NCBI RefSeq assembly: GCF_014652235.1
Contig: NZ_BMYK01000001.1
Coordinates: forward strand, 186,001 to 250,000
DNA length: 64,000 nt
Direction of reading: 5' to 3'
Source: Pseudorhodoferax aquiterrae
GTDB taxonomy: Bacteria; Pseudomonadota; Gammaproteobacteria; Burkholderiales; Burkholderiaceae_C
The position numbers and the translations under genes were made by a program. Within the stretch, counting starts at the first letter, position 1; each line of letters begins with the position of its first letter. Positions 22,580 to 40,519 of this stretch are shown one piece after another. The notes under the pieces are model-generated. The model was not told where the DNA came from, ran no database searches, and was given only the letters and a program-made list of their open reading frames with translations.

Positions 22580-22657
22580 TGGCGGCCCAGCCCGCAGGCC
22601 GCGCCGTACCCCGGGTGGCGGCAACGGGTGCGCTTTGCACTGTCCGTGAGGTATTTC

Positions 22658-24718: not shown

Positions 24719-27700
24719 TCAGCGTGCAGCGCGCAGGGCGGCCGCTCGTCCCGCCAGGTCCTGCCACGCCGGCTTGTCCGGCGCATACCGCTGCCGCAAG
24801 TAGCCCGCCAGCGCCGCGATCTGCGCGTCCGACAGGTTGTCGGCAAATCCCGGCATGAAGCCGACCTGCGGCCCTGCCGTCTCGCGCACGCCTTCCAGGA
24901 TCACGCGCAGCAGATTGTCCGGGCGCGCGCTGTGCAGCTTGGTCGACAGCGAAAGCGGCAGGTTCAGGCCCAGCAGCCGGGGACCGTCGCCATCGTGGTG
25001 GCAGGCGCCGCAGGCGTTCTCGAAGAGGCGCTGTGCCGGGCCGGGCAGCGTGTCCGTGCGTGCGGCCACGGCAGGCGCCGGAGCGGCCTTTGCCTGGAAC
25101 GAGGCCAGGTAGCTGGCCATCGCGCGGATGTCGGCATCGGGCAGCGCCCCGAGTTCCTGCACCACGGGCGCCATGGGGCCCGTGGCCGCGCCGTGTTCGC
25201 GGCTGTGGCCATGGCGCAGGTAGTCGTAGAAGCTCTGGGCCGTCCACGGCACGGGCGCCTTGGACAGCGCGGTCAGCGCCGGCGCCTCCCAGCCGTCGAT
25301 CAGTGCGCCCGACAGGAAGGCCGCACCGCCGCGCTCCGCGCCCAGCGCATCGCGCGGCGTGTGGCAGGCGCCGCAATGGCCCACGCCGTTGACGAGGTAG
25401 GCGCCGCGGTTCCATTCCGGCGTCTGGCCGGGGTCGGGCTTCCAGGCGCCGGCGTCCAGGTTCAGCGCGTTCCAGCCGGCCAGCAGCGGGCGCAACCCGA
25501 ACGGGAAGCGCAGTTGCGTGGCGGGCGGCTGGTGCGCCACGGCCGGTTGCGCCATCAGGTAGGCGTACAGGGCCGTCAGGTCCTCGTCCGTCATCTTCGT
25601 GAAGGCCGTGTACGGAAAGGCCGGATACAGGTGGCGGCCGTCGCGCGAGATGCCCTCGCGCATGGCGCGCTGGAAGGCGGCCAGCGACCAGGCACCGATG
25701 CCGGTGGTCGGGTCGGGCGTGAGGTTGGTGGTGTAGACCGTGCCGAAGGGCGTGTCCATGGCGCGGCCGCCCGTGTTGGGCTGGCCGCCCGGCGCGGTGT
25801 GGCAGACCACGCAGTCACCGGCGGCCGCGAGCAGGCGGCCGCGCTCGATGGTGGCGGCGCTGTAGGTGTCCAGGGCCGGGCGTGCCACGGGCGCGATGGC
25901 GCTGCGCCAGCCGGCCAGCCCGGCCACGGTGGCGATGCCGCCGACCACCAGGGCCAGCGCCACGGCCCATACGGGCTTGCGGCGCGGCAGGCGGGCGTCG
26001 GGCGGCAGCCCCCCCGCAGGCGCGGGCACCGCGGCTTCGGCCTGAGGGGCGGGTGCGGGCGGGAGCGGCAACTGGCCCTGGTGCAGCGCCGCGCGCACCA
26101 CCTCGGGCGTGAACGGCGGCGCGCGCAGGCGCACGCCGGTGGCGTCGAAGATGGCGTTGGCGATGGCCGCCGTGCCCGGCACCGAGGCCGATTCGCCGGC
26201 CCCCAGGGGTGCCTCGCCGGGCCGCGGCATGAGCATGACCTCGACGACCGGCACCTCGCGGAAGGACAGCAGCGGGTAGCTGCCCCATTCGCGGTTCAGC
26301 GTGATGCCCGTCGCCGGCTCGACCTCCACGCGCTCCTTGAGCGCGCGGCTCGTGGTCTGCAGCACGTTGCCGTGCACCTGGTGCTGCACGCCGGCCGGGT
26401 TGACCATGAGGCCCGCGTCATGGCCCACGACCACGCGGCTCACGTGCACCTCGCCCGTGCGCCGGTTGACCTCCACGTCGGCCACCCAGGCCGCCCAGGC
26501 GGCCCCGAAGCCCGGGAACTTGCTGTGGATGTAGCGCGCGTAGGCGAAGCCCTGGCCCTTGAGGATGTCGCCTTCGGCCGGTTGCTGCTGCGGCGCGGTG
26601 TGCGGCTTCCAGCCGGCCTTGGCGGCCGTGGCGCGCACGAGCTCGGCCGCGCGCGCATCGGGCAGGTGGCGCAGCCGGTAGTCCACCGGGTCGACGCCAG
26701 CGGCCGTGGCCAACTCGTCGATGTAGCTTTCGTGCGCGAAGGAATTGGGCAGGGCCGACACGCCGCGCAGCCAGGAGGCCCGCAGCATGGGCGCCATGTC
26801 GTTGGCCGCCACGCGCAGGTGGGTGTAGGCATAGGGCGGCACGGCTGTGCGGTCGCCCATCTCGAAAGCCTTGGCCACGGGCTCCACCGTGCGCGTGAGC
26901 AGCAGCGCCAGCGTGGGCGCGCCGTTGCTCGGGTAGGAGGTCTGGAAGTCGTAGGCGGCCGGCGTGCCGTCGGCATTGAGGCCGCCGTCGATCTGCATGA
27001 GCTGGGCCGCGCCCTTGGGTTCCCAGGCCGTCTCCTGCGCGCGCGTGAGCTGCACACGCACGGGCCGGCCCACCGCGCGCGACAGCAGCAGCGCGTCGGC
27101 GGCCACGTCGTCGGCGCCGTTGCGGCCGTAGCAGCCGGCCGCCTCCATGCGCACCACGTCGATGCGGGCATCGGCGACGCCGGTCAGCAGGGCCAGGTCG
27201 GCGCGCAACACATGCGGGTTCTGGGTCCCGGCCCAGACCGTGGCCACCGTCTCGGCCGCCTCGCCGTGCCAGTGCGCGAGCGCGCAGGACGGGCCGATGG
27301 ACGCATGCAATTGGTAGGGCCACACGTAGGTGCGCGGCATGTGGGCGGCAGCGCCCGCGATGGCGGCGTCCACCTGGCCCTGCTCGAGCAGCAGCCGGCG
27401 CGTGGAGGGGTTGGCACGCAGCGCCTGCTCGGTCTGGTCGATGCCGGGCATGCCGGGCCAGGGCTTCCAGCGCACCTGCAGCGCGGCCATGGCGGCCTCG
27501 GCCATCTCCTCGCGTTCGGCGACCACGCCGACGAAGTCGCGCTGCACCACGACCGCGATGACGCCCGGGATGTGGGCGACGGAGCTTTCGTCCACCCCTT
27601 CCAGCGTGTTGCCGACGAAGTCGCCAGCGTCGAGGCCGGCATAGGGCGGGCGCACCACGCGGCCATGCAGCATGCCGGGCACGCGCATGTCGTGCACGAA

Positions 27701-28249
27701 GATCTGTTCGCCGTGGACCTTGGCCGGGATGTCCACGCGCGGCAGGGACTGGCCGACCAGGCGGTAGTCCTCCACGGCCTTGGTCGGCGCCTGGGTGTCG
27801 AGCCGCAGCTCCACACGCCGGCCCGCGAGTGTGGCGGCGCCGCCGTTGGCCTGCAGCCAGGCCCGTGCCTGGGCCGCGGCCAGGCGCAGCGGCCCGGCGT
27901 GGATCTGGATCGACGCACTGGCGATGGTGGCGCCCTGGTTGGGCACGCTGGCCGTGCTGCCCATGACCATGGTCACCCGCGCGGGCGCGAGATCCAGCTC
28001 CTCGGCCACGATCTGCGTGAGCGCGGTGCGCAGGCCGGTGCCCAGGTCCACGTGGCCCGCGAAGCCCGTGGCGCTGCCGTCGTCCCAGCAAGCCAGCAGC
28101 ACCTCCGGGCCCTCGGCCGGATTGCCGGCCACGGCGGGTGGCTGCCCTGGCGCGGGCGGCGGCGGCGCCGGCACCTCGCGCAGCACCAGCAGCACACCTT
28201 CAGCGCCGCGCATGGCCGCACGCGACAGGCCCGCCTTGTCGGCACGCAT
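24719..28249 (-). CDS. nicB: Nicotinate dehydrogenase large subunit NicB-like: molybdopterin domain fused to tri-haem cytochrome c
   Basis: The 1176-residue product is an IorB/NicB-type molybdenum hydroxylase subunit. Its N-terminal 740 residues have the xanthine-dehydrogenase-family fold, with DLGTGLRTALTQIVAEELD, GSTASVPNQGATIASASIQ and a C-terminal GAGESASVPGTAAIANAI. A membrane helix follows (about 760-781). The last 390 residues then carry three haem c sites: CVVCH (near 811), CGACH (near 957) and CGACH (near 1078). Size and layout match NicB of Pseudomonas putida (close to 1190 residues), which hydroxylates nicotinate at C6 and passes electrons to the chain through its cytochromes. The ATG overlaps the nicA stop by one base. 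The helix suggests the haems face the periplasm. Substrate assignment rests on the cluster. Confidence 0.85.
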   Translation of the reverse strand: MRADKAGLSRAAMRGAEGVLLVLREVPAPPPPAPGQPPAVAGNPAEGPEVLLACWDDGSATGFAGHVDLGTGLRTALTQIVAEELDLAPARVTMVMGSTASVPNQGATIASASIQIHAGPLRLAAAQARAWLQANGGAATLAGRRVELRLDTQAPTKAVEDYRLVGQSLPRVDIPAKVHGEQIFVHDMRVPGMLHGRVVRPPYAGLDAGDFVGNTLEGVDESSVAHIPGVIAVVVQRDFVGVVAEREEMAEAAMAALQVRWKPWPGMPGIDQTEQALRANPSTRRLLLEQGQVDAAIAGAAAHMPRTYVWPYQLHASIGPSCALAHWHGEAAETVATVWAGTQNPHVLRADLALLTGVADARIDVVRMEAAGCYGRNGADDVAADALLLSRAVGRPVRVQLTRAQETAWEPKGAAQLMQIDGGLNADGTPAAYDFQTSYPSNGAPTLALLLTRTVEPVAKAFEMGDRTAVPPYAYTHLRVAANDMAPMLRASWLRGVSALPNSFAHESYIDELATAAGVDPVDYRLRHLPDARAAELVRATAAKAGWKPHTAPQQQPAEGDILKGQGFAYARYIHSKFPGFGAAWAAWVADVEVNRRTGEVHVSRVVVGHDAGLMVNPAGVQHQVHGNVLQTTSRALKERVEVEPATGITLNREWGSYPLLSFREVPVVEVMLMPRPGEAPLGAGESASVPGTAAIANAIFDATGVRLRAPPFTPEVVRAALHQGQLPLPPAPAPQAEAAVPAPAGGLPPDARLPRRKPVWAVALALVVGGIATVAGLAGWRSAIAPVARPALDTYSAATIERGRLLAAAGDCVVCHTAPGGQPNTGGRAMDTPFGTVYTTNLTPDPTTGIGAWSLAAFQRAMREGISRDGRHLYPAFPYTAFTKMTDEDLTALYAYLMAQPAVAHQPPATQLRFPFGLRPLLAGWNALNLDAGAWKPDPGQTPEWNRGAYLVNGVGHCGACHTPRDALGAERGGAAFLSGALIDGWEAPALTALSKAPVPWTAQSFYDYLRHGHSREHGAATGPMAPVVQELGALPDADIRAMASYLASFQAKAAPAPAVAARTDTLPGPAQRLFENACGACHHDGDGPRLLGLNLPLSLSTKLHSARPDNLLRVILEGVRETAGPQVGFMPGFADNLSDAQIAALAGYLRQRYAPDKPAWQDLAGRAAALRAAR

Positions 28250-28725
28250 CAAGGGCGGCCCTCCGCGCAGCGCCGTGCCGCGCGCTGCACGGCGTCGAGA
28301 ACTTCCAGGTGCGTGCCGCAGCGGCACAGGTTGTGCGAGAGCTCGGCGCGCACCTGCTGCTGCGTCGGAGCGGGCACGCGCGCGAGCAGCGCGACGGTGG
28401 CCATGACCATGCCGTTCAGGCAGTAGCCGCACTGCGCGGCCTGCGCATCGATGAAGGCCTGCTGCACCGGGTGCGGCGCCTCGCGCGTACCCAGGCCTTC
28501 CAGCGTGGTGATGTGGCGGCCCGCCACGCCGTGCGCAGGCACCACGCAGCTGCGCGCAGCCACGCCATCGACCAGCACCGTGCAGCTGCCGCACTGGCCC
28601 AGGCCGCAGCCGTACTTGGGACCGTTCAGGCCGCAGTCGTTGCGCAGCAGGTGCAGCAGCGAGGTCTCGCGCGGCGTGTCGAAGTGCCGTTCGCTGCCGT
28701 TGACGTGCAGGGTGTAGGCCGTCAC
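28249..28725 (-). CDS. nicA: Nicotinate dehydrogenase small subunit NicA-like ([2Fe-2S] x2)
   Basis: The 158-residue small subunit of a molybdenum hydroxylase has both iron-sulphur motifs. The plant-type site is Cys40, Cys45, Cys48 and Cys60 (in KYGCGLGQCGSC and SCVV). The second site, Cys99, Cys102, Cys134 and Cys136, lies in QCGYCLNGM and CRCGTH. It carries electrons from the molybdenum centre to the NicB cytochrome domain. The start is a GTG at 28725 that overlaps the stop of the nicotinamidase gene in a GTGA junction, and the stop overlaps nicB. There is no export signal. It could serve another heterocycle hydroxylase, but the enzymes encoded around it point to nicotinate. Confidence 0.88.
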   Translation of the reverse strand: MTAYTLHVNGSERHFDTPRETSLLHLLRNDCGLNGPKYGCGLGQCGSCTVLVDGVAARSCVVPAHGVAGRHITTLEGLGTREAPHPVQQAFIDAQAAQCGYCLNGMVMATVALLARVPAPTQQQVRAELSHNLCRCGTHLEVLDAVQRAARRCAEGRP

Positions 28726-29435
28726 GCGCCTTCCACGTCGCCGGACTGGATGCGCTTGACGCCCTTGGCCGCCATCTGCTTCCAGGCCGCGGCCAGCGAG
28801 CCGTTGAGGTCGATGGCGCGCGTGGCGTCCTCGACCACGTAGGCCTCGAAGCCCGCGGCGCGCGCGTCCAGTGCGGTCCAGGCCACGCAGAAGTCGGTCG
28901 CCAAGCCGGTGATGTAGACGGTCTTGATGCCGCGCGCCTTGAGGTAGCCGGCCAGGCCGGTCACGGTCTTGCGGTCGGCTTCCTGGAAGGCCGAGTAGCT
29001 GTCCACGCCCTTGTTGTAGCCCTTGCGGATGATGAGCTGCGTGGTGGGCAGTTGGAGGTCCTTGTGCAGCGCGGCGTCCTCCGTGCCCTGTACGCAGTGG
29101 TCGGGCCACAGCACCTGGTTGCCGTAATTGAGCTTGATGCTGTCGAAGGGCTTCTTGCCGCCGTGCGCACTGGCGAACGAGGCATGGCCCTGCGTGTGCC
29201 AGTCCTGCGTGACCACGATGTTCTGGAACGCGAGCGAGAGCTTGTTGATGACGGGCACGACCTCGGCCCCGCCCTTGACGGGCAGCGTGCCGCCATCGAT
29301 GAAGCAGTTCTGCACGTCGACCACGATCAGCGCGGCGTTGGCGCCGGGCTTCAACTTCGCGGCGGCGAACAGCGGCGGCGCCAGGGCGACGAGGCCCAGT
29401 GCGGCGGCGGAGCGGAGGACGGTTCTGCGTTGCAT
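28722..29435 (-). CDS. Nicotinamidase (isochorismatase family) with N-terminal export signal
   Basis: The 237-residue protein has a nicotinamidase core: catalytic Asp40 (VVDVQNCF), metal ligands Asp78, His80 and His84 (DWHTQGHASF), Lys138 (IRKGYNKGVDSYSAF), the WPDHCVQGT signature, and nucleophile Cys183 (TDFCVAW). It should hydrolyse nicotinamide to nicotinate and ammonia. Before the core there are 26 extra residues, MQRRTVLRSAAALGLVALAPPLFAAA, which look like a signal peptide with a twin-arginine-like pair and an AAA cleavage region. E. coli PncA is cytosolic, so export is unusual and would suit salvage of external nicotinamide for NicAB. The ATG has GGGAG six bases upstream. It overlaps nicA by 4 bp and follows livF by 25 bp. 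Confidence 0.88.
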   Translation of the reverse strand: MQRRTVLRSAAALGLVALAPPLFAAAKLKPGANAALIVVDVQNCFIDGGTLPVKGGAEVVPVINKLSLAFQNIVVTQDWHTQGHASFASAHGGKKPFDSIKLNYGNQVLWPDHCVQGTEDAALHKDLQLPTTQLIIRKGYNKGVDSYSAFQEADRKTVTGLAGYLKARGIKTVYITGLATDFCVAWTALDARAAGFEAYVVEDATRAIDLNGSLAAAWKQMAAKGVKRIQSGDVEGA

Positions 29436-29460
29436 GGAAAGCTCCCGGTGGTGGAAGAAA

Positions 29461-30182
29461 TCAGACGCTGAGGTAGGCGCGGCGCACCTCTTCGTTGGCG
29501 GCCAGTTCGGCCATGCTGCCTTCGAAGCGGATCTGCCCCTTCTCGAGCACGTAGGCGCGGTCGCTCACGAGCTCGGCGAAATGCATGTTCTGCTCGGACA
29601 GCAGGATGGACACGCCCTGGCCCTTGAGCTCCAGGATCATGTGGGCCATCTGCTCGACGATGACGGGCGCCACGCCCTCGGAGGGCTCGTCCAGCAGCAC
29701 CAGGTAGGGGTTGCCCATCAGCGTGCGCGCCACGGTCAGCATCTGCTGCTCGCCGCCGCTCATGCGCCCGCCCGGGCGGTTGGGCATCTCGCCCAGGTTG
29801 GGGAAGAGCTTGAACAATTTCTCGGGCGTCCACAGCGGCGCGTCCGTGCCGTCCGCCCAGCGGCGTGCGGGCTGCCTGCCGACTTCCAGGTTCTCCATCA
29901 CCGTGAGGTCGGTGAACACGCGCCGGTCTTCGGGCACGAAGCCCAGGCCCAGGCGTGACGCATGGTGCGGCTCGGTGCGCGAGATGTCGTGGTCCAGGAA
30001 GCGGATGCTGCCGGCGCGCTTGGCCAGCATGCCCATGATGGCCTTGAGCGTGGTGGACTTGCCCGCGCCGTTGCGGCCCATCAGCGCGACGACCTCGCCG
30101 CGGCGGACCGACAGGTCCACGTCGTAGAGGATCTGGGCGGCACCGTACCAGGCGCGCAGGGCCTTGGTTTCGAGCAGAGCTG

Positions 30183-30186
<4 letters not shown>
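29461..30186 (-). CDS. livF: ABC transporter ATP-binding protein, branched-chain amino acid (HAAT) type, LivF
   Basis: This is a 241-residue ATPase. Walker A is GRNGAGKST, the Q-loop region is GFVPEDRRVF (family-typical), the signature is MSGGEQQML, and Walker B with the catalytic Glu is LVLLDEPSEG. This is the standard LivF form. Its ATG overlaps the LivG stop in an ATGA junction, and the nicotinamidase gene follows 25 bp later. The transporter genes lie between the reductase genes and the hydroxylase genes of the nicotinate cluster, so the transported compound is probably nicotinate, nicotinamide or a hydroxylated relative rather than leucine. That is inference from position only. Confidence 0.93.
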
Positions 30187-30955
<769 letters not shown>

Positions 30956-30959
<4 letters not shown>

Positions 30960-32839: not shown

Positions 32840-32934
32840 GGGAAATTCTCTGCAGGCCGCCGCGGCCGGGCGGCGCATGGGTGCATCGGGGGCATGGGCG
32901 CCGGCTCGCCGGCGCCCGCCTCAGGGTGGAGCGG

Positions 32935-34143
32935 TCAGTCCTGCGCGCGCGACTTCTTGATCTCGGCCGCAGGCGGCTGGAAGCGTGCGTCGGCGCCGTC
33001 CAGGTAGACGTAGTCGACCATCACGCCCTTGCCGCCGTCGTTCTTGGTCCGGCCGACGAAGGCGCCCATGGTGGACTGGTGGTCTTCGGCGCGGTAGGTG
33101 ATCTTGCCGAAGGGGCTGGGCACCTGCAGGCCCTTGAAGGCGGCAACCAGCTTGTCGGCCTCGGTGCCGCCGGCCTTGGCGATGCCCGCGGCGGCCGAGT
33201 GGATCATGCTGTAGCCCACCACCGAGCCCAGGCGCGGGTAGTCCTTGAACTTGGCCTGGTAGGCCTTGAGGAAGGCATCGTGGTCGGCCGTCTTGACCGA
33301 GTACCAGGGGTAGCCCGTCACGATCCAGCCGTCGGGGGCCTCGTCCTTGAGCGGATCGAGGTATTCGGGCTCGCCGGTCAGCACGGAGACGACGGTGCGG
33401 TCCTTGAACAGGCCACGCGTGTTGCCTTCGCGCACGAACTTGGTCAGGTCGGCGCCGAACAGCACGTTGAAGATGGCATCGGGCTTGGCGTCGGCCAGTG
33501 CCTGCACCACGCTGCCGGCATCGACCTTGCCCAGCGGCGTGGCCTGCTCGGCGACGAACTCCACGTCCGGCTGCGCGGCCTTGAGCAGGTTCTTGAACGC
33601 TGCCGTGGCCGACTGGCCGTACTCGTAGTTGGGGTAGACGATGGCCCAGCGCTTCTTCTTGAGCTTGGCCGCCTCGGGCACCAGCATGGCGGCCTGCATG
33701 TAGGTGCCCGGGCGCAGCCGGAAGGTGTACTGGTTGCCGCCCTGCCAGGTCATCTTGTCGGTCAGCGGTTCGCCGGCCAGGTAGAAGAACTTCTTCTGCT
33801 TGGCGAAGTCGGCCAGCGCCATGCCGGTGTTGGACAGGAAGGCGCCGGCGAGCAGATCGACCTTTTCGCGCGAGACCAGTTCCTCGGCCATGCGCACGGT
33901 GTCGCCCGGGCTGCCGTTGTCGTCGCGCGTGATGAGCTCGATCTTCCTGCCGTTGATGCCGCCCTTGGCGTTGATCTCCTCGACGGCCAGGTCCATGCCC
34001 TTCTTGTAGGGCTCCAGGAAGGCGGGCTGGGCCTTGTAGCTGTTGATCTCGCCGATCTTGATCACGCCCTGGGCATGGGCCGGGACGAGCGAGGCGAGCG
34101 CGAGGACCGATGCGGCGCTGAACACATGACGCAGGGATTTCAT
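32935..34143 (-). CDS. Periplasmic binding protein of an HAAT-type ABC transporter
   Basis: The 402-residue protein begins with a clear Sec signal peptide (MKSLRHVFSAASVLALASLVPAHAQG) followed by VIKIGEINSYKAQPAFLEPYKKGMDLAVEEINAKGGINGRKI, the type-I periplasmic binding fold of Leu/Ile/Val-type receptors (PF13458). The ligand pocket cannot be read by eye. It belongs with the fused permease and two ATPases downstream. Because the four transporter genes are inserted between nicotinate catabolic genes on one strand, the ligand is most likely a pyridine carboxylate or amide. The PF06684 gene ends 50 bp upstream. Confidence 0.92.
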   Translation of the reverse strand: MKSLRHVFSAASVLALASLVPAHAQGVIKIGEINSYKAQPAFLEPYKKGMDLAVEEINAKGGINGRKIELITRDDNGSPGDTVRMAEELVSREKVDLLAGAFLSNTGMALADFAKQKKFFYLAGEPLTDKMTWQGGNQYTFRLRPGTYMQAAMLVPEAAKLKKKRWAIVYPNYEYGQSATAAFKNLLKAAQPDVEFVAEQATPLGKVDAGSVVQALADAKPDAIFNVLFGADLTKFVREGNTRGLFKDRTVVSVLTGEPEYLDPLKDEAPDGWIVTGYPWYSVKTADHDAFLKAYQAKFKDYPRLGSVVGYSMIHSAAAGIAKAGGTEADKLVAAFKGLQVPSPFGKITYRAEDHQSTMGAFVGRTKNDGGKGVMVDYVYLDGADARFQPPAAEIKKSRAQD

Positions 34144-34193
34144 CGAGAGACTCCTAGGGAACGATGGAAACATGCTGGTGGGCGGCCGGCGGC

Positions 34194-34778
34194 TCAGCGC
34201 AGGCCGTCCTTGCCTTCGATCTCGCTGGCCTGCAGGCCGCCGACGCGCGGCAGCGGCCGGCCGCCGGCGGTGACGGACACGGCCACGACGATCTCGTTGG
34301 CACGCGGTGCATCGGGCACGCGCGCCTCAATCGCGTCGAAGTGGCTGCGCACGAAGGCGGCGTCCTTGTGGCCCAGCGGCACGTCGATGGCACAACCCAT
34401 GCCGCCCATCTTCTTGGCCGAGGGCACCAGGGCCGCGCCCTTTTCGACGGCCCGGCGCAGCGGCGCGCCGAGCTTGGGGTGCAGGATGGCGGCCGCGTGC
34501 TCCAGCTCCCCGGCCTCGCCGACGATGGCGGCCTTGCCGTAGCCCTCGGCCTGCGCGGGGGTGATGCCCAGCGCAGCCACGCACTTGTCGCCGAGCAGGC
34601 CGCCGAGTTCCTCGCCGATGGCGACCAGCGCGTCGAGGTTGTCCTCGTAGCGGCCCGCGAAGGGGTTGGTGATCACGGCCATGGCCAGTGCGCGGCGCAC
34701 CGGAGGCGTGACCGCACGCCCCATTTCGAGGCGGGTCTCATCGACTTGGACGATCAGTTTGCGGATCTCTGCAGGCAT
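34194..34778 (-). CDS. PF06684 'amino acid synthesis' family protein, function unknown, in the nicotinate cluster
   Basis: This 194-residue cytoplasmic protein belongs, by its pattern, to PF06684 (DUF1185, labelled amino acid synthesis). Visible parts are MPAEIRKLIVQVDETRLEMGR at the N-terminus, VITNPFAGRYEDNLDALVAIGEELG, YGKAAIVGEAGELEHAAAILHPKLG, and ALVPSAKKMGGMGCAIDVPLGHKDAAFVRSHFD. No experimentally firm function for the family is known to me. It lies between the UPF0280 gene (80-bp gap holding a possible promoter) and the transporter. Its steady place beside 6-hydroxynicotinate reductase suggests a role in the same pathway, for example on the open-chain product or in protecting an intermediate. 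That is inference. Confidence 0.82.
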   Translation of the reverse strand: MPAEIRKLIVQVDETRLEMGRAVTPPVRRALAMAVITNPFAGRYEDNLDALVAIGEELGGLLGDKCVAALGITPAQAEGYGKAAIVGEAGELEHAAAILHPKLGAPLRRAVEKGAALVPSAKKMGGMGCAIDVPLGHKDAAFVRSHFDAIEARVPDAPRANEIVVAVSVTAGGRPLPRVGGLQASEIEGKDGLR

Positions 34779-34857
34779 GGCGGCGGTTCAGGTGGCAAAG
34801 AGGAGGGCATTGTGCGATCGGCGAGGGCGCTTGCGCTTAGGTACTTTCATTAAGCAA

Positions 34858-35727
34858 TTACTGCACCAACTGGTGTTCGAGGGCGGCGCCGGTGCTGCGC
34901 CAGCGGTCCTGGCAAACCAGCGCAGCATGCCAGATCAGCCCCTGGGCGCGCAAAGCCTCGGCGCGGGCCAGGCCGGCCTGCAGCGCCTGGTCGACGAGCG
35001 GCGTCGGCAGGGGTGGAACATCGACCGTGACGAGGCGCTCACCGAGGTCGCTGTCGTCTTTGATCTGGCAGGCCGGCAGGCGCGCGATGCGCGCGTCGGA
35101 CACGTCGACGGCGTTGGCGATCACGGTGGCGGCGGCGTCCGCCGCCGCCGCGTCGCGCGCCAGCACGGTCACGCTGTCGGCGATGCCCAGCGAGAAACTG
35201 CGGCCGCGCCAGCCGCTGGTGGCCACGCCCCGCACGGGCAGATCGGCCGTGAGCGTGAACTGTGCGTCGGTGTGGAGCTTGCTGCTCTGGCCCGGCCGAA
35301 AGCGGGCCAGATCGGCCCACAGGCCCACGCGCACCTGCTGGCCCGCGGTCAGGTGGATGGCGATGTCGCCGCCGTTGTTGACCCAGGCACGCGCGATGCC
35401 GGCGCCGGTGTAGTGCGCGAGGATGTCCTGGGCGACGGCACCGGCCACGGCGGCCATGGGCGTGATGAAGCCGCTGCGGTACGGCGCACAGGCCTGCCAC
35501 ATGCGGCGCGCAACGCCGCCATGCAGCGGGCAGTCGGCACCGACCGGTGCGCGCAGCAGCGGCAGCTCGGCCACGAGTTCCGGCAGCACCGTCGTGAAGC
35601 GCTGCCAGGCCGCGTCGTGGGCGGCCTGCACGGCATCGGCGTCGCCGTCCGCCGCGATCACGAGGTCGATGGGCCCGTGCTGGAAATGGGCCCGACCGCT
35701 GGGCAGTGTGCTGCGGTTCGGGCCCAT
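34858..35727 (-). CDS. UPF0280 family protein (ApbE-like fold), possibly a flavin transferase for Hnr
   Basis: The 289-residue protein fits UPF0280, an ApbE-like family. The segment AWVNNGGDIAIHLTAGQQVRVGLW (about residues 110-133) mirrors the ApbE element in which an Asn/Asp-x-GGD is followed by G...W.VGI and which holds FAD and Mg. The later segment IADSVTVLARDAAAADAAATVIANAVD resembles ApbE's GLADALATALFV region. ApbE proteins attach FMN covalently to Thr or Ser of partner proteins. Here the neighbour is the flavin and Fe-S enzyme Hnr, whose stop lies 8 bp upstream of this ATG; a TTG at 35739 would overlap it. A cofactor-loading role for Hnr is a testable idea, not shown. Confidence 0.8.
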   Translation of the reverse strand: MGPNRSTLPSGRAHFQHGPIDLVIAADGDADAVQAAHDAAWQRFTTVLPELVAELPLLRAPVGADCPLHGGVARRMWQACAPYRSGFITPMAAVAGAVAQDILAHYTGAGIARAWVNNGGDIAIHLTAGQQVRVGLWADLARFRPGQSSKLHTDAQFTLTADLPVRGVATSGWRGRSFSLGIADSVTVLARDAAAADAAATVIANAVDVSDARIARLPACQIKDDSDLGERLVTVDVPPLPTPLVDQALQAGLARAEALRAQGLIWHAALVCQDRWRSTGAALEHQLVQ

Positions 35728-35735
35728 GGTGGCGA

Positions 35736-37316
35736 TCAACCCAGCAGCGGTGCTTGTCCGATCGGCCAGCCGTTGCCGGCCGCAGGCGCCAGCATGCGGC
35801 GCGCGCGCGGTGCGCCGTCGTTGTGCCAGGCGCCGTGTTGCAGCGTGTCGGGCAGCGAGCGCACCTGCTCCATGTGGCCGCCCAGGCGTTCGTAGTCCGA
35901 CAGCCGCATCGTGAACTCCAGCGGCGCGACGATCGCCGGCGTGGGCACGGTGCCGAAGCTGTTGTCGGGCATGCGCATCACATCGACCATGACCGTGATG
36001 CCGCCGCCGGGCCAGACGTAGCCCGGCGCGCCGCCCAGCGTGACGTTCACGATGGACTGCTTGATGGCCTGCGTGAGCAGCACCGGGTTCTCGCTGACGC
36101 CCGCGCGCAGGCTGCCGCCCGCGCCACCCAGGAACAGCACCGTGGTCAGCGAGGGCTCGCAGTTCTCGCCGATGCGCGCGACCACGCGCGCGACCTCTTC
36201 GGGCATGGGGCAGGGCTGCGGCACCAGTTGCGCGTCCAGCACGTACCAGGCCGCGTGCTCCCCGGTCGTGGAGACCATCAGCAGCCGCAGACCGGGCCAG
36301 GCCACACCGGCCTCGCATTCCTCGATGATGGACAACGGGTCGGCGATGTCGGTGCCGCCCCAGCCCGTGCCCGGGTTGGCCACTTGGAAATAGCGGCCGG
36401 GCGTGGACTTGCGGCCCCGCACCTTGATGCCGGCCGCGCGCATGCCCAGGCAGCGGCCGGCCTGGTGCTCGGTCAGAACGCCCGTGATGTGGTCGTCCAC
36501 GACGACGACCTCGTCGCAGATGCCGAAGAACTGCCGCGCGAAGATGCCCACCGTGGCCGAGCCGCAGCCCACGCGCATGCGCTGCTCGCGCACGCCATTG
36601 ACGATGGGCGCCTGGCCGGCTTGTACCGTGAGCTGGGCGCCGCCGTCGATGGTCAGTTCCACAGCGTTCTTGTTGCCCAGGGCCTGCATGGCGTCCAGCG
36701 TCACGCGGCCTTCCTTCTTGCTGCCGCCCGTGAGATGGTGCACGCCGCCCAGCGACAGCATCTGCGAGCCGTACTCCGCCGTCGTCACGTGGCCGATCAC
36801 CTCGCCCTTGCAGCGCACGTTGGCCTGCTCGGGGCCGAGCCAGCGGTCGGTGTCGATCTTGAGCTTCAGGCTGCAGTAGCTGAAGATGCCCTCGGTCACG
36901 ACCGTGACCATGTCCACGCCATCGGCCTCGGACGCGACGATGAAGGGCGCGGGCTTGTAGTCGGGGTAGGTGGTGGAGGCGCCGATGCCGGTCACGAAGA
37001 CCTGCGGGGCGGGGGCCAGAGGCGCGGCCTCGTCGGCGTCGCGCGCCGTGAAAGGCACCAGCGGCTGCTCCGCATCCACCGTCCTTTGCAGCAGCACCAC
37101 GGGATCCACGCGCACCAGCACGCCGTCCTCGTTGGCGTAGCGATCGCAGGCGCCGGTGCGGCCGCGGCCGATCTGGCACAGCACGGGGCAGGCGTTGCAC
37201 TCGACCTTGTCGCTGGCCATGCGCTCGTTGCGCGGCCTGGCGCGCTCCAGGCCCTGGGGCAACAAGGCCTCCGGCATGTCGGGAAGGCCGTCGGTCTTGG
37301 TGTGCTCGTTCAACAT
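35736..37316 (-). CDS. hnr: 6-hydroxynicotinate reductase (Hnr-like, iron-sulphur flavoprotein)
   Basis: The 526-residue protein matches the 6-hydroxynicotinate reductase family described from Eubacterium barkeri (EC 1.3.7.1), a ferredoxin-dependent enzyme making 1,4,5,6-tetrahydro-6-oxonicotinate. Near the N-terminus is a cysteine cluster Cys40, Cys43, Cys47 and Cys57 (ECNACPVLCQIGRGRTGACDRY) suited to an Fe-S centre. Further Gly/Cys segments are MRVGCGSATVGIFARQFFGICDE, VANPGTGWGGTDIADPL and VLFLGGAGGSLRAGV. GGAG lies seven bases before ATG 37316. It diverges from a ferredoxin-NADP reductase gene, the natural electron source, and the enamidase-like gene lies beyond that. E. barkeri is an anaerobe, so finding this set beside haem c genes is notable. 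Confidence 0.83.
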   Translation of the reverse strand: MLNEHTKTDGLPDMPEALLPQGLERARPRNERMASDKVECNACPVLCQIGRGRTGACDRYANEDGVLVRVDPVVLLQRTVDAEQPLVPFTARDADEAAPLAPAPQVFVTGIGASTTYPDYKPAPFIVASEADGVDMVTVVTEGIFSYCSLKLKIDTDRWLGPEQANVRCKGEVIGHVTTAEYGSQMLSLGGVHHLTGGSKKEGRVTLDAMQALGNKNAVELTIDGGAQLTVQAGQAPIVNGVREQRMRVGCGSATVGIFARQFFGICDEVVVVDDHITGVLTEHQAGRCLGMRAAGIKVRGRKSTPGRYFQVANPGTGWGGTDIADPLSIIEECEAGVAWPGLRLLMVSTTGEHAAWYVLDAQLVPQPCPMPEEVARVVARIGENCEPSLTTVLFLGGAGGSLRAGVSENPVLLTQAIKQSIVNVTLGGAPGYVWPGGGITVMVDVMRMPDNSFGTVPTPAIVAPLEFTMRLSDYERLGGHMEQVRSLPDTLQHGAWHNDGAPRARRMLAPAAGNGWPIGQAPLLG

Positions 37317-37368
37317 CGTGGGGCTCCGGGTTCCGCTGCCGCGGCTTGTCGCAGCTCGGCGTTTCATG

Positions 37369-37402
37369 TAGCATTCACTTAACGTGAGTGCGGCAGATGC
37401 TA
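37369..37402. promoter_or_regulatory. Possible operator between hnr and the ferredoxin reductase gene
   Basis: TAGCAT (37369-37374) and ATGCTA (37397-37402) form a perfect 6-bp inverted repeat. Inside it, CACTTAACGTGAGTG (37376-37390) is an imperfect palindrome with matching CACT/AGTG ends. This lies in the 219-bp divergent region controlled by no other visible element, so it is the best candidate site for the TetR-type protein encoded downstream. Evidence is the symmetry only. Confidence 0.4.
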
Positions 37403-37535
37403 AACACAATTGCACGGGGCCGCAAGCATTCGGACAGGCAATAGCCATGCCGTTCGCATGCCGGAGACACCAGTGGCCGCAGCGGCATGTGAAAAAATCA
37501 GCCGTTTCACCTTTGCATCCAACCGCCCGAACGTC

Positions 37536-38312
37536 ATGAGCGCATTCAACGAAGAGAAGGTCCTCTCCGTCCACCACTGGACAGACCGCTTGTTCAGTTT
37601 CACCACGACGCGCGACCCGTCGCTGCGCTTCTCGAACGGGCACTTCACGATGATCGGCCTGCGCGGCGACAACGGCAAACCGCTGCTGCGCGCCTACAGC
37701 ATCGCCAGCGCCAACTACGAAGACCACCTCGAGTTCCTGTCGATCAAGGTGCCGGACGGCCCGCTGACTTCCAAGCTGCAGCACATCCAGGTCGGCGACT
37801 CCATCATCGTGGGCAAGAAGCCCACCGGCACGCTGGTGACCGACTACCTGCTGCCCGGCAAGCGCCTGTACCTGTTCGGCACCGGCACCGGCCTCGCACC
37901 GTTCCTGAGCATCGTGCGCGATCCGGACACGTATGACCGCTACGAGCAGGTTATCGTGGTGCATGGCGTGCGCCAGGTCGACGAGCTGGCCTACCACGAC
38001 CTGCTGACCGAGCACCTGCCCGCGCACGAGGTGCTGGGCGAGCTGGTCAGCAGCAAGCTGCGCTACTACCCGACGGTCACCCGCGAGTCCTACCGCAACA
38101 TGGGCCGCATCACCGACCTCATCGAGAACGGCAAGATGTGCAACGACCTGGGCCTGCCCCAGATCAATGCCGCCGAAGACCGTGTGATGCTGTGCGGCAG
38201 CCCGGCCATGCTGCGCGACCTCAAGGTCATGCTGGAGCACCGCGGCTTCAAGGAAGGCAACACCACGACGCCGGGCGACTTCGTCGTCGAGCGCGCCTTC
38301 GTCGAGCAATAA
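37536..38312 (+). CDS. Ferredoxin-NADP reductase (Fpr family)
   Basis: The 258-residue enzyme is a bacterial-type ferredoxin-NADP+ reductase. FAD is held by RAYSIASANYEDHLEF (about residues 50-65). The NADP domain has GTGTGLAPFLSIVRDPDTYDRYEQVIVVHGVR, and near the end MLCGSPAMLRDLKVMLEHRGF. The C-terminus is VERAFVEQ. It would pass electrons from NADPH to a ferredoxin that feeds the divergently encoded 6-hydroxynicotinate reductase. ATG 37536 gives the normal family length; the open frame begins earlier. The ribosome site is weak. The TetR gene follows 16 bp downstream. A housekeeping Fpr role cannot be excluded, but the position argues for a pathway-specific copy. Confidence 0.88.
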   Translation: MSAFNEEKVLSVHHWTDRLFSFTTTRDPSLRFSNGHFTMIGLRGDNGKPLLRAYSIASANYEDHLEFLSIKVPDGPLTSKLQHIQVGDSIIVGKKPTGTLVTDYLLPGKRLYLFGTGTGLAPFLSIVRDPDTYDRYEQVIVVHGVRQVDELAYHDLLTEHLPAHEVLGELVSSKLRYYPTVTRESYRNMGRITDLIENGKMCNDLGLPQINAAEDRVMLCGSPAMLRDLKVMLEHRGFKEGNTTTPGDFVVERAFVEQ

Positions 38313-38328
38313 GACCGGCACCCTGCCC

Positions 38329-39099
38329 ATGCCCCGGCCCGCCAAGACAGCCGACGGCCAGCGCAAGCCGGGGGTGCGGGAACAGGCGGTCATCGCCTCG
38401 CGCGCCAATCTGCTGCGCGCGGCCACGCGCATCTTCGCCAAGCACGGCTTCGCCGGCGGGCGCGTGGGCCAGATCTCCAAGGCGGCCAAGTCCTACGATC
38501 GCATGATCTACTACTACTTCGGTAGCAAGGAAGGTCTGTACATCGCGGTCATCGAGGACATCTACCGGCGCATGAACGAGGCCGAGGAGGCCTTGGCGCT
38601 GGACGAGCACCAGCCCGTGGAATCGCTCGAGACCGTGGTGCGCTTCGTCTGCGGCTACTACCGCAAGCATCCCGAGTTCGTCACGCTGCTCAACAACGAG
38701 AACCTGCTGCAAGGGCGCCACATCGCCAAGATGCAGTCGGCCCAGCAGTATTCCTCGCCGGCGATCTCGGTGCTGCAGCTGCTGCTCGCCGCAGGCAGCG
38801 CGCAGGGCGTGTTTCGCGACGACATCGCGGTGCAGGACGTCTACATGATGATCGCCGCGCTGGGCTACTTCCCGCAGTCCAACCGCTTCACGCTGTCCGA
38901 ATTCCTGGGCCAGCGCATCGACGATCCGGCGGCGTCTGCGCGCTGGGAAGCCTTCGTCGTCGATGCCGTGCTGCGCACCGTGATGCGCGAGCCCGTGCCG
39001 CACAACGAATCCCCCAGCCCCCACGGAGAACCCCCCACATGGCAGAAGCCGCCGCCACCGCCGCCTCGGGCAAAGTCGTCATCCGCAACATCGGCCTGA
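38329..39099 (+). CDS. TetR/AcrR family transcriptional regulator
   Basis: The 256-residue protein has a TetR helix-turn-helix at residues 27-70: SRANLLRAATRIFAKHGFAGGRVGQISKAA followed by YDRMIYYYFGSKEGLY, which is the canonical recognition-helix ending. The ligand domain follows. The C-terminus ends in a long Pro/Ser-rich tail (about 35 residues) whose last 20 codons overlap the start of the amidohydrolase gene in another frame. It sits inside the nicotinate cluster and most likely controls the divergent hnr and reductase promoters in response to a pyridine intermediate. The RutR-like look of the N-terminus is suggestive, but the ligand is unknown. Confidence 0.9.
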   Translation: MPRPAKTADGQRKPGVREQAVIASRANLLRAATRIFAKHGFAGGRVGQISKAAKSYDRMIYYYFGSKEGLYIAVIEDIYRRMNEAEEALALDEHQPVESLETVVRFVCGYYRKHPEFVTLLNNENLLQGRHIAKMQSAQQYSSPAISVLQLLLAAGSAQGVFRDDIAVQDVYMMIAALGYFPQSNRFTLSEFLGQRIDDPAASARWEAFVVDAVLRTVMREPVPHNESPSPHGEPPTWQKPPPPPPRAKSSSATSA

Positions 39100-40238
39100 T
39101 GCTGTCGGGCGACATCGACCAGCCCATCCTCCAAGCCGACACCATCGTCGTCCACGACGGTCTGATCACCGCCGTCGGCAAGCTCAAGGATTGCGATGTC
39201 GATGGCGCCACCACCGTCATCGACGCCAAGCAGACCTGCGTGGCGCCCGGCCTCATCGACAGCCATGTGCATCCGGTGTTCGGCGACTGGACGCCGCGCC
39301 AGAACCAGCTCGGCTGGATCGAATCCACGCTCAACGGCGGCGTGACCACCATGATCTCGGCCGGCGAGGTGCACCTGCCGGGCCGGCCCAAGGACATCGT
39401 GGGCCTGAAGGCGCTGGCCATCACGGCGCAGCGCGCCTTCGACAACTTCCGCCCCGGCGGCGTGAAGGTGCTGGCCGGCGCGCCCGTGATCGAGAAGGGC
39501 ATGGTCGAGAGCGACTTCAAGGAGCTGGCCGCCGCTGGCGTGGGCCTGCTCGGCGAGATCGGCCTGGGCTCGGTCAAGGGCGGCACCGAGGCTGCGACCA
39601 TGGTGAAGTGGGCGCGCGCGGCCGGCATCCAGAGCACCATCCACACGGGCGGCCCCTCGATCCCGGGCTCCGGCCTGATCGACAAGGATGTGGTGCTCGA
39701 GGCCGATGCCGACGTGATCGGCCACATCAACGGCGGCCACACGTCGCTGCCGGAGGCCCATGTCTGCGAGCTCTGCGAAAAATCCAGCCGCGCGATCGAG
39801 ATCGTGCACAACGGCAACGAAAAGGTGGCCATCGCGGCCGCGCAGATGGCGCTGCAGCTCAAGTGCCCGCACCGCGTGATCCTGGGCACCGATGGGCCGG
39901 CCGGGTCTGGTGTGCAGCCGCTGGGCATCCTGCGCATGGTGGCCATGCTCTCCAGCCTAGCCAACATTCCGGCCGAGCTGGTGTTCTGCTTCGCCACCGG
40001 CAACACGGCCAAGATCCGCAAGCTCAACTGCGGCCTCATCGAAGTCGGCCGCGCGGCCGACTTCGTGTTCATGGACCGGGCCCAGCACACGGCGGGCCGC
40101 ACGCTGCTCGAAAGCGTGCAACTGGGCGACGTACCGGGCGTTGGCATGGTCATGATCGACGGCATCGTGCGCTGCGGCCGCAGCCGCAACACGCCGCCGG
40201 CGACCGAAATTCCTGTGGTTGTTTCAGGCGCGCATTGA
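39039..40238 (+). CDS. ena: Amidohydrolase, enamidase-like (1,4,5,6-tetrahydro-6-oxonicotinate ring opening)
   Basis: The 399-residue enzyme belongs to the amidohydrolase superfamily. The metal pair His76 and His78 is in GLIDSHVHPVFGDW. Later ligands are plausible in GLLGEIGLGSVKGG, IHTGGPSIPG and GHINGGHTSL, and the catalytic Asp is in ILGTDGPAGSGVQPLG. This is the pattern I associate with enamidase of E. barkeri (EC 3.5.2.18), which hydrolyses 1,4,5,6-tetrahydro-6-oxonicotinate to 2-formylglutarate and ammonia, the step after Hnr. The ATG lies 61 bp inside the end of the TetR gene, in another frame, with GGAG upstream. It is the last gene of the plus-strand run. A different cyclic-amide substrate is possible. 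Confidence 0.82.
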   Translation: MAEAAATAASGKVVIRNIGLMLSGDIDQPILQADTIVVHDGLITAVGKLKDCDVDGATTVIDAKQTCVAPGLIDSHVHPVFGDWTPRQNQLGWIESTLNGGVTTMISAGEVHLPGRPKDIVGLKALAITAQRAFDNFRPGGVKVLAGAPVIEKGMVESDFKELAAAGVGLLGEIGLGSVKGGTEAATMVKWARAAGIQSTIHTGGPSIPGSGLIDKDVVLEADADVIGHINGGHTSLPEAHVCELCEKSSRAIEIVHNGNEKVAIAAAQMALQLKCPHRVILGTDGPAGSGVQPLGILRMVAMLSSLANIPAELVFCFATGNTAKIRKLNCGLIEVGRAADFVFMDRAQHTAGRTLLESVQLGDVPGVGMVMIDGIVRCGRSRNTPPATEIPVVVSGAH

Positions 40239-40263: not shown

Positions 40264-40340
40264 GCGGCTGTAGCTCAGCTGGATAGAGTACTTGGCTACG
40301 AACCAAGGGGTCGTGGGTTCGATTCCTGCCAGCCGCACCA
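40264..40340 (+). tRNA. tRNA-Arg (anticodon ACG), copy 1
   Basis: The 77-nt sequence folds as a complete tRNA with CCA encoded. The acceptor stem GCGGCTG pairs with CAGCCGC, the D arm contains AGCTCAGCTGGATAGAG, and the anticodon arm CTTGG/CCAAG carries loop CTACGAA, giving anticodon ACG (A34 read as inosine). The T arm is GTGGG TTCGATT CCTGC. It starts 25 bp after the enamidase-like gene and is followed by its own terminator. An identical copy lies 102 bp downstream. Confidence 0.97.
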
Positions 40341-40442: not shown

Positions 40443-40519
40443 GCGGCTGTAGCTCAGCTGGATAGAGTACTTGGCTACGAACCAAGGGGTCGTGGGTTCG
40501 ATTCCTGCCAGCCGCACCA
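40443..40519 (+). tRNA. tRNA-Arg (anticodon ACG), copy 2
   Basis: All 77 bases are identical to copy 1 at 40264-40340, including the encoded CCA and the CTACGAA anticodon loop. The flanks also resemble each other (GGCTTC just before, an ATGGGYCGGTCC hairpin just after), while the DNA between has diverged. This points to duplication of a whole promoter-tRNA-terminator unit of about 179 bp. Confidence 0.97.

What the first reader, a model, noticed from the sequence alone, without database searches (positions are those of the whole stretch)
24719..40238. Divergent cluster for reductive nicotinamide/nicotinate catabolism in a haem-c-bearing betaproteobacterium
The window encodes, in two divergent runs, an exported nicotinamidase, NicA/NicB, an Hnr-like 6-hydroxynicotinate reductase, a ferredoxin-NADP reductase, an enamidase-like amidohydrolase, a TetR regulator and a private ABC transporter. 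The Hnr/enamidase route was worked out in an anaerobe, Eubacterium barkeri, and a reductive route was reported in Azorhizobium. Aerobic Pseudomonas instead uses NicC/NicX-type oxidative steps, and none of those genes is here. The pathway stops at 2-formylglutarate, so later steps lie outside the window or are among the two unassigned proteins.
Basis: partly seen in the sequence, partly recalled or inferred. Interest (0 to 1): 0.85.

Follow-up and report, generated by a model that had tools for sequence, protein, structure and literature searches.

The report
Reductive nicotinate breakdown gene cluster
This bacterium carries a known kind of gene cluster for breaking down vitamin B3 by a reductive route, ordinary among its relatives, but the comparison ties one nameless protein in it tightly to the key reductase.

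Summary
Window 24719-40238 holds a divergent cluster: hnr-UPF0280-DUF1185-ABC transporter-nicotinamidase-nicA-nicB (minus) and fnr-tetR-ena (plus). The last protein is a clear enamidase (PDB 2VUN, E=1e-106). It resembles the ApbE flavin transferases in fold but lacks their H-x-I-D-x-R-T-G motif. (2) DUF1185 usually comes as two paralogues, A and B; this lineage keeps only B in the cluster. (3) A tandem palindromic operator lies between hnr and fnr. My leading inference is that UPF0280 matures Hnr, perhaps by attaching its flavin. Hnr's fold and the later pathway steps remain unresolved.

The parts
24719..28249 (-). nicB-like large subunit: molybdopterin domains, hydrophobic segment at about residue 760, three CxxCH c-type cytochrome sites after it
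   Evidence: Pfam MoCoBD_1/2 and Cytochrom_C; CxxCH at residues 813, 959, 1080 and the most hydrophobic 19-residue window at 760; closest solved cytochrome part 8gy3 E=2e-97
28249..28725 (-). nicA-like [2Fe-2S] subunit
   Evidence: Pfam Fer2 and Fer2_2
28722..29435 (-). nicotinamidase with an N-terminal signal-like segment (twin arginine read by eye)
   Evidence: PDB 2wt9 nicotinamidase E=8e-84; NCBIfam NF008623 179.7 bits, cut-off 174
29461..30186 (-). ABC transporter ATPase (LivF-like)
   Evidence: Pfam ABC_tran
30183..30959 (-). ABC transporter ATPase (LivG-like)
   Evidence: Pfam ABC_tran and BCA_ABC_TP_C; start codon inferred
30956..32878 (-). fused LivH-LivM-type permease
   Evidence: Pfam BPD_transp_2, two stretches; best NCBIfam matches UrtC and UrtB, both below cut-off
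32935..34173 (-). periplasmic substrate-binding protein, presumed nicotinate/nicotinamide binder
   Evidence: Pfam Peripla_BP_6 E=3e-73; ligand inferred
34194..34778 (-). DUF1185/AA_synth (PF06684), B-type paralogue
   Evidence: Pfam 241 bits, cut-off 27; PDB 2qtp E=8e-85; falls with the B sequences, A/B split support 1.0 in an 18-sequence tree
34858..35727 (-). UPF0280 (COG2122-like) protein with ApbE-like fold, proposed Hnr maturation factor
   Evidence: NCBIfam NF003322 401 bits, cut-off 290; 2o34 E=1e-5; model pLDDT 91.4, Foldseek matches 2o34 and ApbE/FmnB flavin transferases
35736..37316 (-). 6-hydroxynicotinate reductase (Hnr-like), Cx2Cx3Cx9C near the N terminus
   Evidence: 74-76% identical to the annotated 6-hydroxynicotinate reductase of CP099606; seven conserved cysteines
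37362..37409 (.). tandem palindromic operator in the divergent hnr/fnr promoter region, presumed TetR site
   Evidence: profile from 52 relatives, window not in training, scores 39.2 bits here and nothing else in 64 kb exceeds 5
37536..38312 (+). ferredoxin-NADP reductase (another in-frame ATG at 37458)
   Evidence: Pfam FAD_binding_6 and NAD_binding_1; best NCBIfam PRK10926 154 bits, below its cut-off 390
38329..39099 (+). TetR-family regulator
   Evidence: Pfam TetR_N and TetR_C_29
39039..40238 (+). enamidase
   Evidence: PDB 2vun ENAMIDASE E=1e-106, residues 11-390 against 2-381

Best explanation
A complete uptake-and-upper-pathway cluster for nicotinamide/nicotinate breakdown by the reductive (6-hydroxynicotinate reductase/enamidase) route. 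Nicotinamide is hydrolysed by an exported nicotinamidase. Nicotinate is imported by the private Urt/Liv-type ABC transporter and hydroxylated at C6 by NicA plus the molybdenum domain of NicB, with electrons passed through NicB's haem-c tail to the respiratory chain. Hnr, fed by the ferredoxin-NADP reductase, reduces 6-hydroxynicotinate to 1,4,5,6-tetrahydro-6-oxonicotinate. Enamidase opens that ring to ammonia plus 2-formylglutarate. A TetR repressor acting on the tandem operator between hnr and fnr controls both arms. UPF0280 is most likely a maturation factor for Hnr (perhaps flavin attachment), and DUF1185-B an accessory step. Shown by sequence: family identities, gene order, operator, co-occurrence. 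Inferred: every reaction in this organism, export of the nicotinamidase, the TetR-operator pairing, and the UPF0280 and DUF1185 roles.
For: Enamidase match 1e-106 with the motifs HVH, HTGG, HINGG and DxPxG in register with 2VUN (their metal roles recalled). Nicotinamidase match. NicA/NicB domain layout. Annotated Hnr relatives. Conserved neighbourhood: UPF0280 next to hnr in 78 of 78 loci with room, DUF1185-B in 73 of 73; and in 51 loci with long flanks enamidase 49, nicA 49, tetR 48. Of 79 operator sites found in 85 loci, all lie near hnr or tetR; the profile was trained on 53 of those loci, so many hits are expected. PMC3511419: metabolite evidence for the route in SG-6C (abstract) and BLAST assignment of the cluster.
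Against: No experiment on this organism. E. barkeri Hnr was not compared directly. Pfam and NCBIfam gave no match above cut-off for Hnr, and its structure model is poor (pLDDT 57.8). NicAB-type enzymes are a broad family, so the first substrate rests on context. fnr is seen in only 35 of 51 long loci of relatives and the binding protein in 38, so the electron donor and the transporter are less fixed than the core. UPF0280 lacks the ApbE H-x-I-D-x-R-T-G motif; its profile alignment to ApbE is weak (HHalign probability 12.8), its Foldseek TM-scores to ApbE-type structures are modest (0.38-0.50 on the query in the rows with E <= 0.001), and PMC5764234 says the ApbE homology of COG2122 does not seem to reach the flavin-binding region.
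Confidence: 0.85

Rival explanations
1. The cluster degrades a different N-heterocycle (for example an N-methylated or ring-substituted pyridine carboxylate) that converges on 6-hydroxynicotinate or an analogue; the nicotinate label is borrowed.
For: NicAB-type enzymes are broad as a family; two roseobacter Hnr loci carry a Rieske oxygenase and a different molybdenum hydroxylase, so the Hnr core may serve more than one upper pathway.
Against: This window has nicotinamidase, nicA/nicB and an enamidase very close to 2VUN, the set expected for nicotinate.
Confidence: 0.1
2. UPF0280 is not a flavin transferase: it serves Hnr in another way (iron-sulfur or persulfide chemistry, or as a structural subunit), as was proposed for COG2122 with DUF39 in homocysteine synthesis.
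For: PMC5764234 (passages seen) reports that COG2122 is needed with DUF39 in Desulfovibrio vulgaris and cites a suggested persulfide role; the H-x-I-D-x-R-T-G motif of ApbE is missing.
Against: It keeps GGD/E, A-T-S-G and A-D-x3-T segments that align with ApbE, in a weak alignment, and a similar fold; E. barkeri Hnr is recalled to hold covalently bound flavin (Alhapel 2006, paper not held).
Confidence: 0.4
3. DUF1185-B catalyses a step after the enamidase, for example decarboxylation of 2-formylglutarate toward glutarate, rather than helping Hnr.
For: The Azorhizobium route runs through glutarate (PMC3511419) and no decarboxylase is otherwise apparent in the cluster; DUF1185 has a variant chorismate-mutase fold (PMC2954203).
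Against: DUF1185 stays beside hnr/UPF0280 in three plasmid loci without an enamidase match; in genome G357, which has Hnr, the PF06684 search found none; 21 of 299 genomes have it without Hnr.
Confidence: 0.3

Closest known systems
Proteobacterial nicotinate cluster of Azorhizobium caulinodans ORS571, Bradyrhizobium japonicum USDA110, Rhodopseudomonas palustris HaA2 and strain SG-6C (PMC3511419; Fig. 4 legend and passages seen)
   Same: [quoted passage not shown] route through tetrahydro-oxonicotinate
   Different: Here a betaproteobacterium with a divergent fnr-tetR-ena arm, a nicotinamidase gene and one DUF1185 gene; I did not fetch the four published loci, so their gene order was not compared
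Eubacterium barkeri nicotinate fermentation genes (Alhapel 2006, recalled; paper not held)
   Same: Hnr and enamidase steps; the enamidase matched PDB 2VUN directly (its organism recalled)
   Different: 3hrd, nicotinate dehydrogenase with separate medium and large molybdopterin subunits (organism and absence of haem c recalled), against the NicA/NicB type here; the later fermentation steps are not in this cluster
Comamonadaceae bacterium OTU4NAUVB1 plasmid CP099606 locus
   Same: Same two arms and same order, with overlapping ena and tetR
   Different: Two DUF1185 genes, no nicotinamidase match in the 31.6 kb read, plasmid-borne
COG2122 in homocysteine synthesis (PMC5764234, passages seen)
   Same: A UPF0280/COG2122 protein acting together with another enzyme system that includes a ferredoxin-domain protein
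   Different: Partner there is DUF39 (HcyBio, PF01837); no Hnr member of 16 matched HcyBio and the window genome gave no HcyBio match

Membership tests
Enamidase (2VUN type) | Full-length homology to 2VUN with conserved metal-binding motifs | tested here: met
   E=1e-106, 380 residues aligned, HVH/HTGG/HINGG/DxPxG in register; metal roles of the motifs recalled
6-hydroxynicotinate reductase (Hnr) | Homology to biochemically characterised E. barkeri Hnr | not testable with these tools
   Sequence not obtained; indirect: 74% identity to an annotated Hnr and published 42% between SG-6C Hnr and E. barkeri Hnr
6-hydroxynicotinate reductase (Hnr) | Conserved cysteine ligands for iron-sulfur clusters | tested here: met
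   Seven cysteines kept in every row that covers them, of 16: C40, C43 (15 of 15 each), C47, C57, C148, C251, C386 (16 of 16 each); clusters themselves not shown
6-hydroxynicotinate reductase (Hnr) | Covalently bound flavin (recalled for E. barkeri) | not testable with these tools
   Needs protein chemistry
NicA/NicB nicotinate dehydrogenase | Small [2Fe-2S] subunit plus molybdopterin subunit with three haem-c sites (definition recalled) | tested here: met
NicA/NicB nicotinate dehydrogenase | Acts on nicotinate | not testable with these tools
   Context only
Nicotinamidase (PncA) | NCBIfam NF008623 above its cut-off | tested here: met
   179.7 bits against 174; 2wt9 E=8e-84
UPF0280 (NF003322) | NCBIfam score above cut-off | tested here: met
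   401 bits against 290; that NF003322 corresponds to UPF0280 rests on the annotation of relatives
ApbE flavin transferase (PF02424) | Pfam gathering score | tested here: not met
   14.5 bits against 25.6
ApbE flavin transferase (PF02424) | H-x-I-D-x-R-T-G motif (catalytic role recalled) | tested here: not met
   Absent from the sequence; an 18-residue gap covers it in a low-probability alignment to two near-identical ApbE proteins, one of this genome and one of a congener
DUF39/HcyBio (PF01837), considered for Hnr | Pfam match | tested here: not met
   No HcyBio match listed for 16 Hnr members at E<=10; HMMER filters drop most weak matches
DUF1185/AA_synth (PF06684) | Pfam gathering score | tested here: met
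   241 bits against 27

The most novel reading that the evidence does not exclude
UPF0280 (NCBIfam NF003322, currently 'hypothetical protein') is the dedicated and obligatory maturation enzyme of 6-hydroxynicotinate reductase: an ApbE-fold protein that has lost the standard catalytic loop and installs Hnr's covalent flavin by a modified mechanism. The COG2122 proteins of homocysteine synthesis would then do an analogous job for another enzyme, giving this orphan family one common biochemical role.
Probability: 0.35. Interest if true: 0.65.

Novelty: new member of a known kind. Interest (0 to 1): 0.38.

Why it matters
The cluster itself extends a known pathway to one more betaproteobacterium and shows that it is frequent there. 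The useful part is that it makes an orphan family testable. UPF0280 and Hnr share the same genome distribution in the sample examined, so a simple co-expression experiment could decide what UPF0280 does, with bearing on the unexplained need for COG2122 in homocysteine synthesis. It also suggests that the Pfam name 'Amino acid synthesis' for PF06684, argued partly from branched-chain-type ABC genes nearby (PMC2954203), may be a misreading of nicotinate-type clusters for at least the B-type members.

Tried and rejected
Hnr as a homologue of DUF39/HcyBio: my own idea, because both keep company with COG2122-like proteins. Not supported: none of 16 Hnr members lists a HcyBio match, the window genome and 30 others gave none, and the Hnr fold model was too poor to test it.

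Fold of Hnr: AlphaFold model mean pLDDT 57.8 with 238 of 526 residues under 50; Foldseek found nothing with E <= 0.001. The one recurring sequence signal is a match below the curated cut-off to the glycine-cleavage T-protein C-terminal barrel in 15 of 16 members (best E=5.8e-4). Not built on.

A wider regulon: the pattern ATGTAG-N6-CTACAT with up to 2 mismatches gave 8 places (16 strand-hits) in the window genome against 112 strand-hits for the reversed control. That pattern misses the window's own, diverged operator, which has 3 mismatches, so the search says little about other targets. The bare pattern with 3 mismatches is not significant in the window (3 matches, 4.92 expected); only the 48-base profile is.

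Recent horizontal gain: not favoured. Five of five congeners examined have Hnr at 88-98% identity, and G+C of the cluster (0.701) is like the right flank (0.704), the left being 0.648.

Downstream genes: ORF families recurring around 85 loci were clustered. Unlabelled families recur in up to 18 loci, mostly Variovorax and near relatives; I did not annotate them, so later pathway genes among them are not excluded. Genome-wide tests for NicC/NicX and for the glutarate or methyleneglutarate branch were not run.

Query detail: (first protein), 17, 25 and 27 the Hnr query began 21 residues upstream of the ATG at 37316. In one search one of 19 chosen DUF1185 sequences (from L018) was dropped because the chosen stretch held a stop; one of three ApbE loci (L157) gave no sequence in my script.
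Full report
What is there. The region 24719-40238 of the window (contig C1:186001-250000 of a 7.1-Mb genome) holds two divergent gene runs. Minus strand: hnr, UPF0280, DUF1185, a Urt/Liv-type ABC transporter (binding protein, fused permease, two ATPases), nicotinamidase, nicA, nicB. Plus strand: ferredoxin-NADP reductase, TetR regulator, enamidase. The neighbours look unrelated: a protein with a sub-threshold Wzz match on the left (22628-24715), and two tRNA-Arg genes, a greA/greB-family gene and a RelA/SpoT gene on the right.

Identity of the enzymes. The amidohydrolase matches PDB 2VUN, an enamidase (of E. barkeri, organism recalled), at E=1e-106 over 380 residues, with the metal-site motifs in register (roles recalled). 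The isochorismatase-family protein matches nicotinamidase 2wt9 at 8e-84 and passes the NCBIfam nicotinamidase cut-off. NicA has Fer2 and Fer2_2 domains. NicB carries molybdopterin domains, its most hydrophobic 19-residue window at residue 760, and three CxxCH sites after it; I infer a cytoplasmic molybdenum domain and a periplasmic haem-c tail. Hnr has no match above cut-off in Pfam or NCBIfam. Its identity rests on 74% identity to a protein annotated as 6-hydroxynicotinate reductase and on the published 42% identity between SG-6C Hnr and E. barkeri Hnr (PMC3511419, passages seen). Seven cysteines are kept in every row that covers them in a 16-member alignment, four of them as Cx2Cx3Cx9C near the N terminus. 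That region weakly matches proteins in three genomes (E 4.5e-5 to 4.8e-4); the one I tested is an AmmeMemoRadiSam radical-SAM enzyme.

How ordinary it is. The best 80 loci were kept; 79 titles name what I recall as betaproteobacteria and one says only 'uncultured bacterium'. Five of five congeners and one of five other genomes of the family examined have Hnr. In a sample of 229 genomes of the class only the window genome and two others gave strong Hnr matches, so the gene is far from universal. [quoted passage not shown] Alhapel 2006 is recalled to have listed the first three genes in nine Proteobacteria; that paper is not held. The finding as stated is therefore a new member of a known kind.

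Neighbourhood statistics. Among the 80 loci, UPF0280 lies directly after hnr in 78 of 78 with enough sequence; DUF1185-B follows in 73 of 73 and DUF1185-A in 69 of 73 (the four without: L065, L076, L078, L110). In the 51 loci with at least 9 kb on both sides, counting any match of at least 45% identity in the locus: livHM 50, enamidase 49, nicA 49, livG 49, tetR 48, livF 48, nicB 44, binding protein 38, fnr 35, nicotinamidase 24; genes beyond the flank are missed. In 22 further genomes found by whole-genome search, UPF0280 is next to hnr in 21; in the exception, G190, it lies on another contig beside a molybdenum hydroxylase and both DUF1185 types. Five of the 26 plasmid records with Hnr were opened, and all five have UPF0280 and DUF1185 next to hnr.

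UPF0280 and Hnr go together. In samples of 299 genomes of the phylum, drawn alike (the listed handles coincide), Hnr (E <= 1e-20) is listed for 21 and UPF0280 (E < 1e-90) for the same 21, the window genome included. Two other genomes gave only weak UPF0280-profile hits (2.9e-5 and 3.7e-4). The 21 fall in 9 genera, so the number of independent events is smaller than 21. DUF1185 behaves differently: 41 of 299 genomes have it, including 20 of the 21 with Hnr (G357 lacks it) and 21 without Hnr.

What UPF0280 might do. It passes NCBIfam NF003322, named only 'hypothetical protein'. Its AlphaFold model is confident (pLDDT 91.4) and matches DVU1097 (2o34, E=2.2e-11, TM 0.57 on the query) and then ApbE/FmnB-type flavin transferases (E=1.4e-5 to 7.8e-4, TM 0.38-0.50). 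A profile alignment to two closely related ApbE proteins (HHalign probability only 12.8, E=0.0022) pairs the GGD/E, ATSG and A-D-x3-T segments and leaves a gap over the H-x-I-D-x-R-T-G loop, a motif that is also absent on reading the sequence. It fails the Pfam ApbE cut-off, so I do not file it as an ApbE. E. barkeri Hnr is recalled to carry a covalently bound flavin, which is why flavin attachment is my leading guess. [quoted passage not shown] The library holds no paper with 'UPF0280', none with 'hydroxynicotin' and 'ApbE', none with '6-hydroxynicotinate' and 'covalently bound flavin'; of four papers with 'COG2122' I opened one.

DUF1185. In an 18-sequence tree the B sequences separate from the rest with support 1.0; the A sequences group at 0.83 and the window genome's two other copies form their own branch beside them. 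The window cluster has only B, as do four of four congeners whose fetched sequence reaches that far. The single copy of the Pleomorphomonas plasmid groups with A, so either type can stand alone. The window genome's other two copies lie near genes of other functions (10 proteins scanned, the two copies among them). The window protein's best solved relative is 2qtp. The structure paper on BB2672 and SPO0826 linked the family to amino-acid metabolism partly through branched-chain-type ABC genes SPO0822-0825 next to SPO0826 (PMC2954203, passages seen). A similar layout here is in a nicotinate cluster, so that link looks weak; I did not fetch the SPO region.

Regulation. The hnr/fnr intergenic regions of 57 relatives share a tandem of sites close to ATGTAGTGTACACTACAT, the two best sites 22 bp apart in 50 of 57. 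A profile from 52 of them, without the window, finds one site in the 64-kb window, 37362-37409, at 39.2 bits, with nothing else above 5. Scanning 85 loci with a profile from 53 of them (so partly circular) gave 79 sites above 15 bits: 65 labelled fnr+hnr, 9 hnr+tetR, 3 hnr, 2 tetR. Of the last two, the L110 site lies within 60 bases of the estimated hnr start; only the L067 site is truly apart, at tetR and about 5.9 kb from hnr. That one case and the nine hnr/tetR regions point to TetR as the binder (inferred). The operator covers the upstream in-frame ATG at 37367, which favours the conserved ATG at 37316 as the hnr start.

Variants. Three of the five plasmid loci opened (Sagittula, Pleomorphomonas, Neorhizobium) have genes annotated as hydantoinase or acetophenone carboxylase subunits and no enamidase match within 15 kb; one of these subunits forms one sequence family across the three. 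Two roseobacter loci carry a Rieske oxygenase and an FAD/molybdenum hydroxylase. The hnr-UPF0280 core may therefore be joined to different upper and lower steps.

Verdict. Observation confirmed, interpretation supported, novelty modest. The most useful result is the Hnr-UPF0280 pairing and the experiment it suggests.

Noticed in passing
L038, L040, L041 (Sagittula, Pleomorphomonas, Neorhizobium plasmids): Hydantoinase-type genes (annotated as acetophenone carboxylase subunits in Pleomorphomonas) stand near hnr-UPF0280-DUF1185 and no enamidase match is found within 15 kb, suggesting an ATP-dependent ring-opening variant.
   Followed up: partly
L038 18565-19635 and L039 19097-20164: A Rieske ring-hydroxylating oxygenase alpha subunit sits inside two roseobacter Hnr clusters; a different entry substrate is possible.
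   Followed up: no
L035/L036 (genome G242): hnr is split over two overlapping reading frames: pseudogene, frameshift or sequencing error. Described only.
   Followed up: no
window 35736-37316: 15 of 16 Hnr relatives give a match below cut-off to the glycine-cleavage T-protein C-terminal barrel (best E=5.8e-4).
   Followed up: no
window about 37071-37277 (Hnr N terminus): The region around Cx2Cx3Cx9C of Hnr weakly resembles proteins of 355-400 residues in three genomes; the one tested, L013, is an AmmeMemoRadiSam radical-SAM enzyme.
   Followed up: partly
window 40264-40340 and 40443-40519: Two tRNA-Arg (acg) genes directly after the enamidase gene.
   Followed up: no
window 38329-39099 and 39039-40238: tetR and ena overlap by 61 bases; an overlap of 55 bases is annotated in CP099606, suggesting translational coupling.
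   Followed up: no
L163 (genome G357): A cluster of molybdenum hydroxylase, hnr, UPF0280 and ABC transporter without a DUF1185 or enamidase match in 19 kb.
   Followed up: partly
window 22628-24715: Protein with a sub-threshold Wzz chain-length-determinant match just left of the cluster.
   Followed up: no
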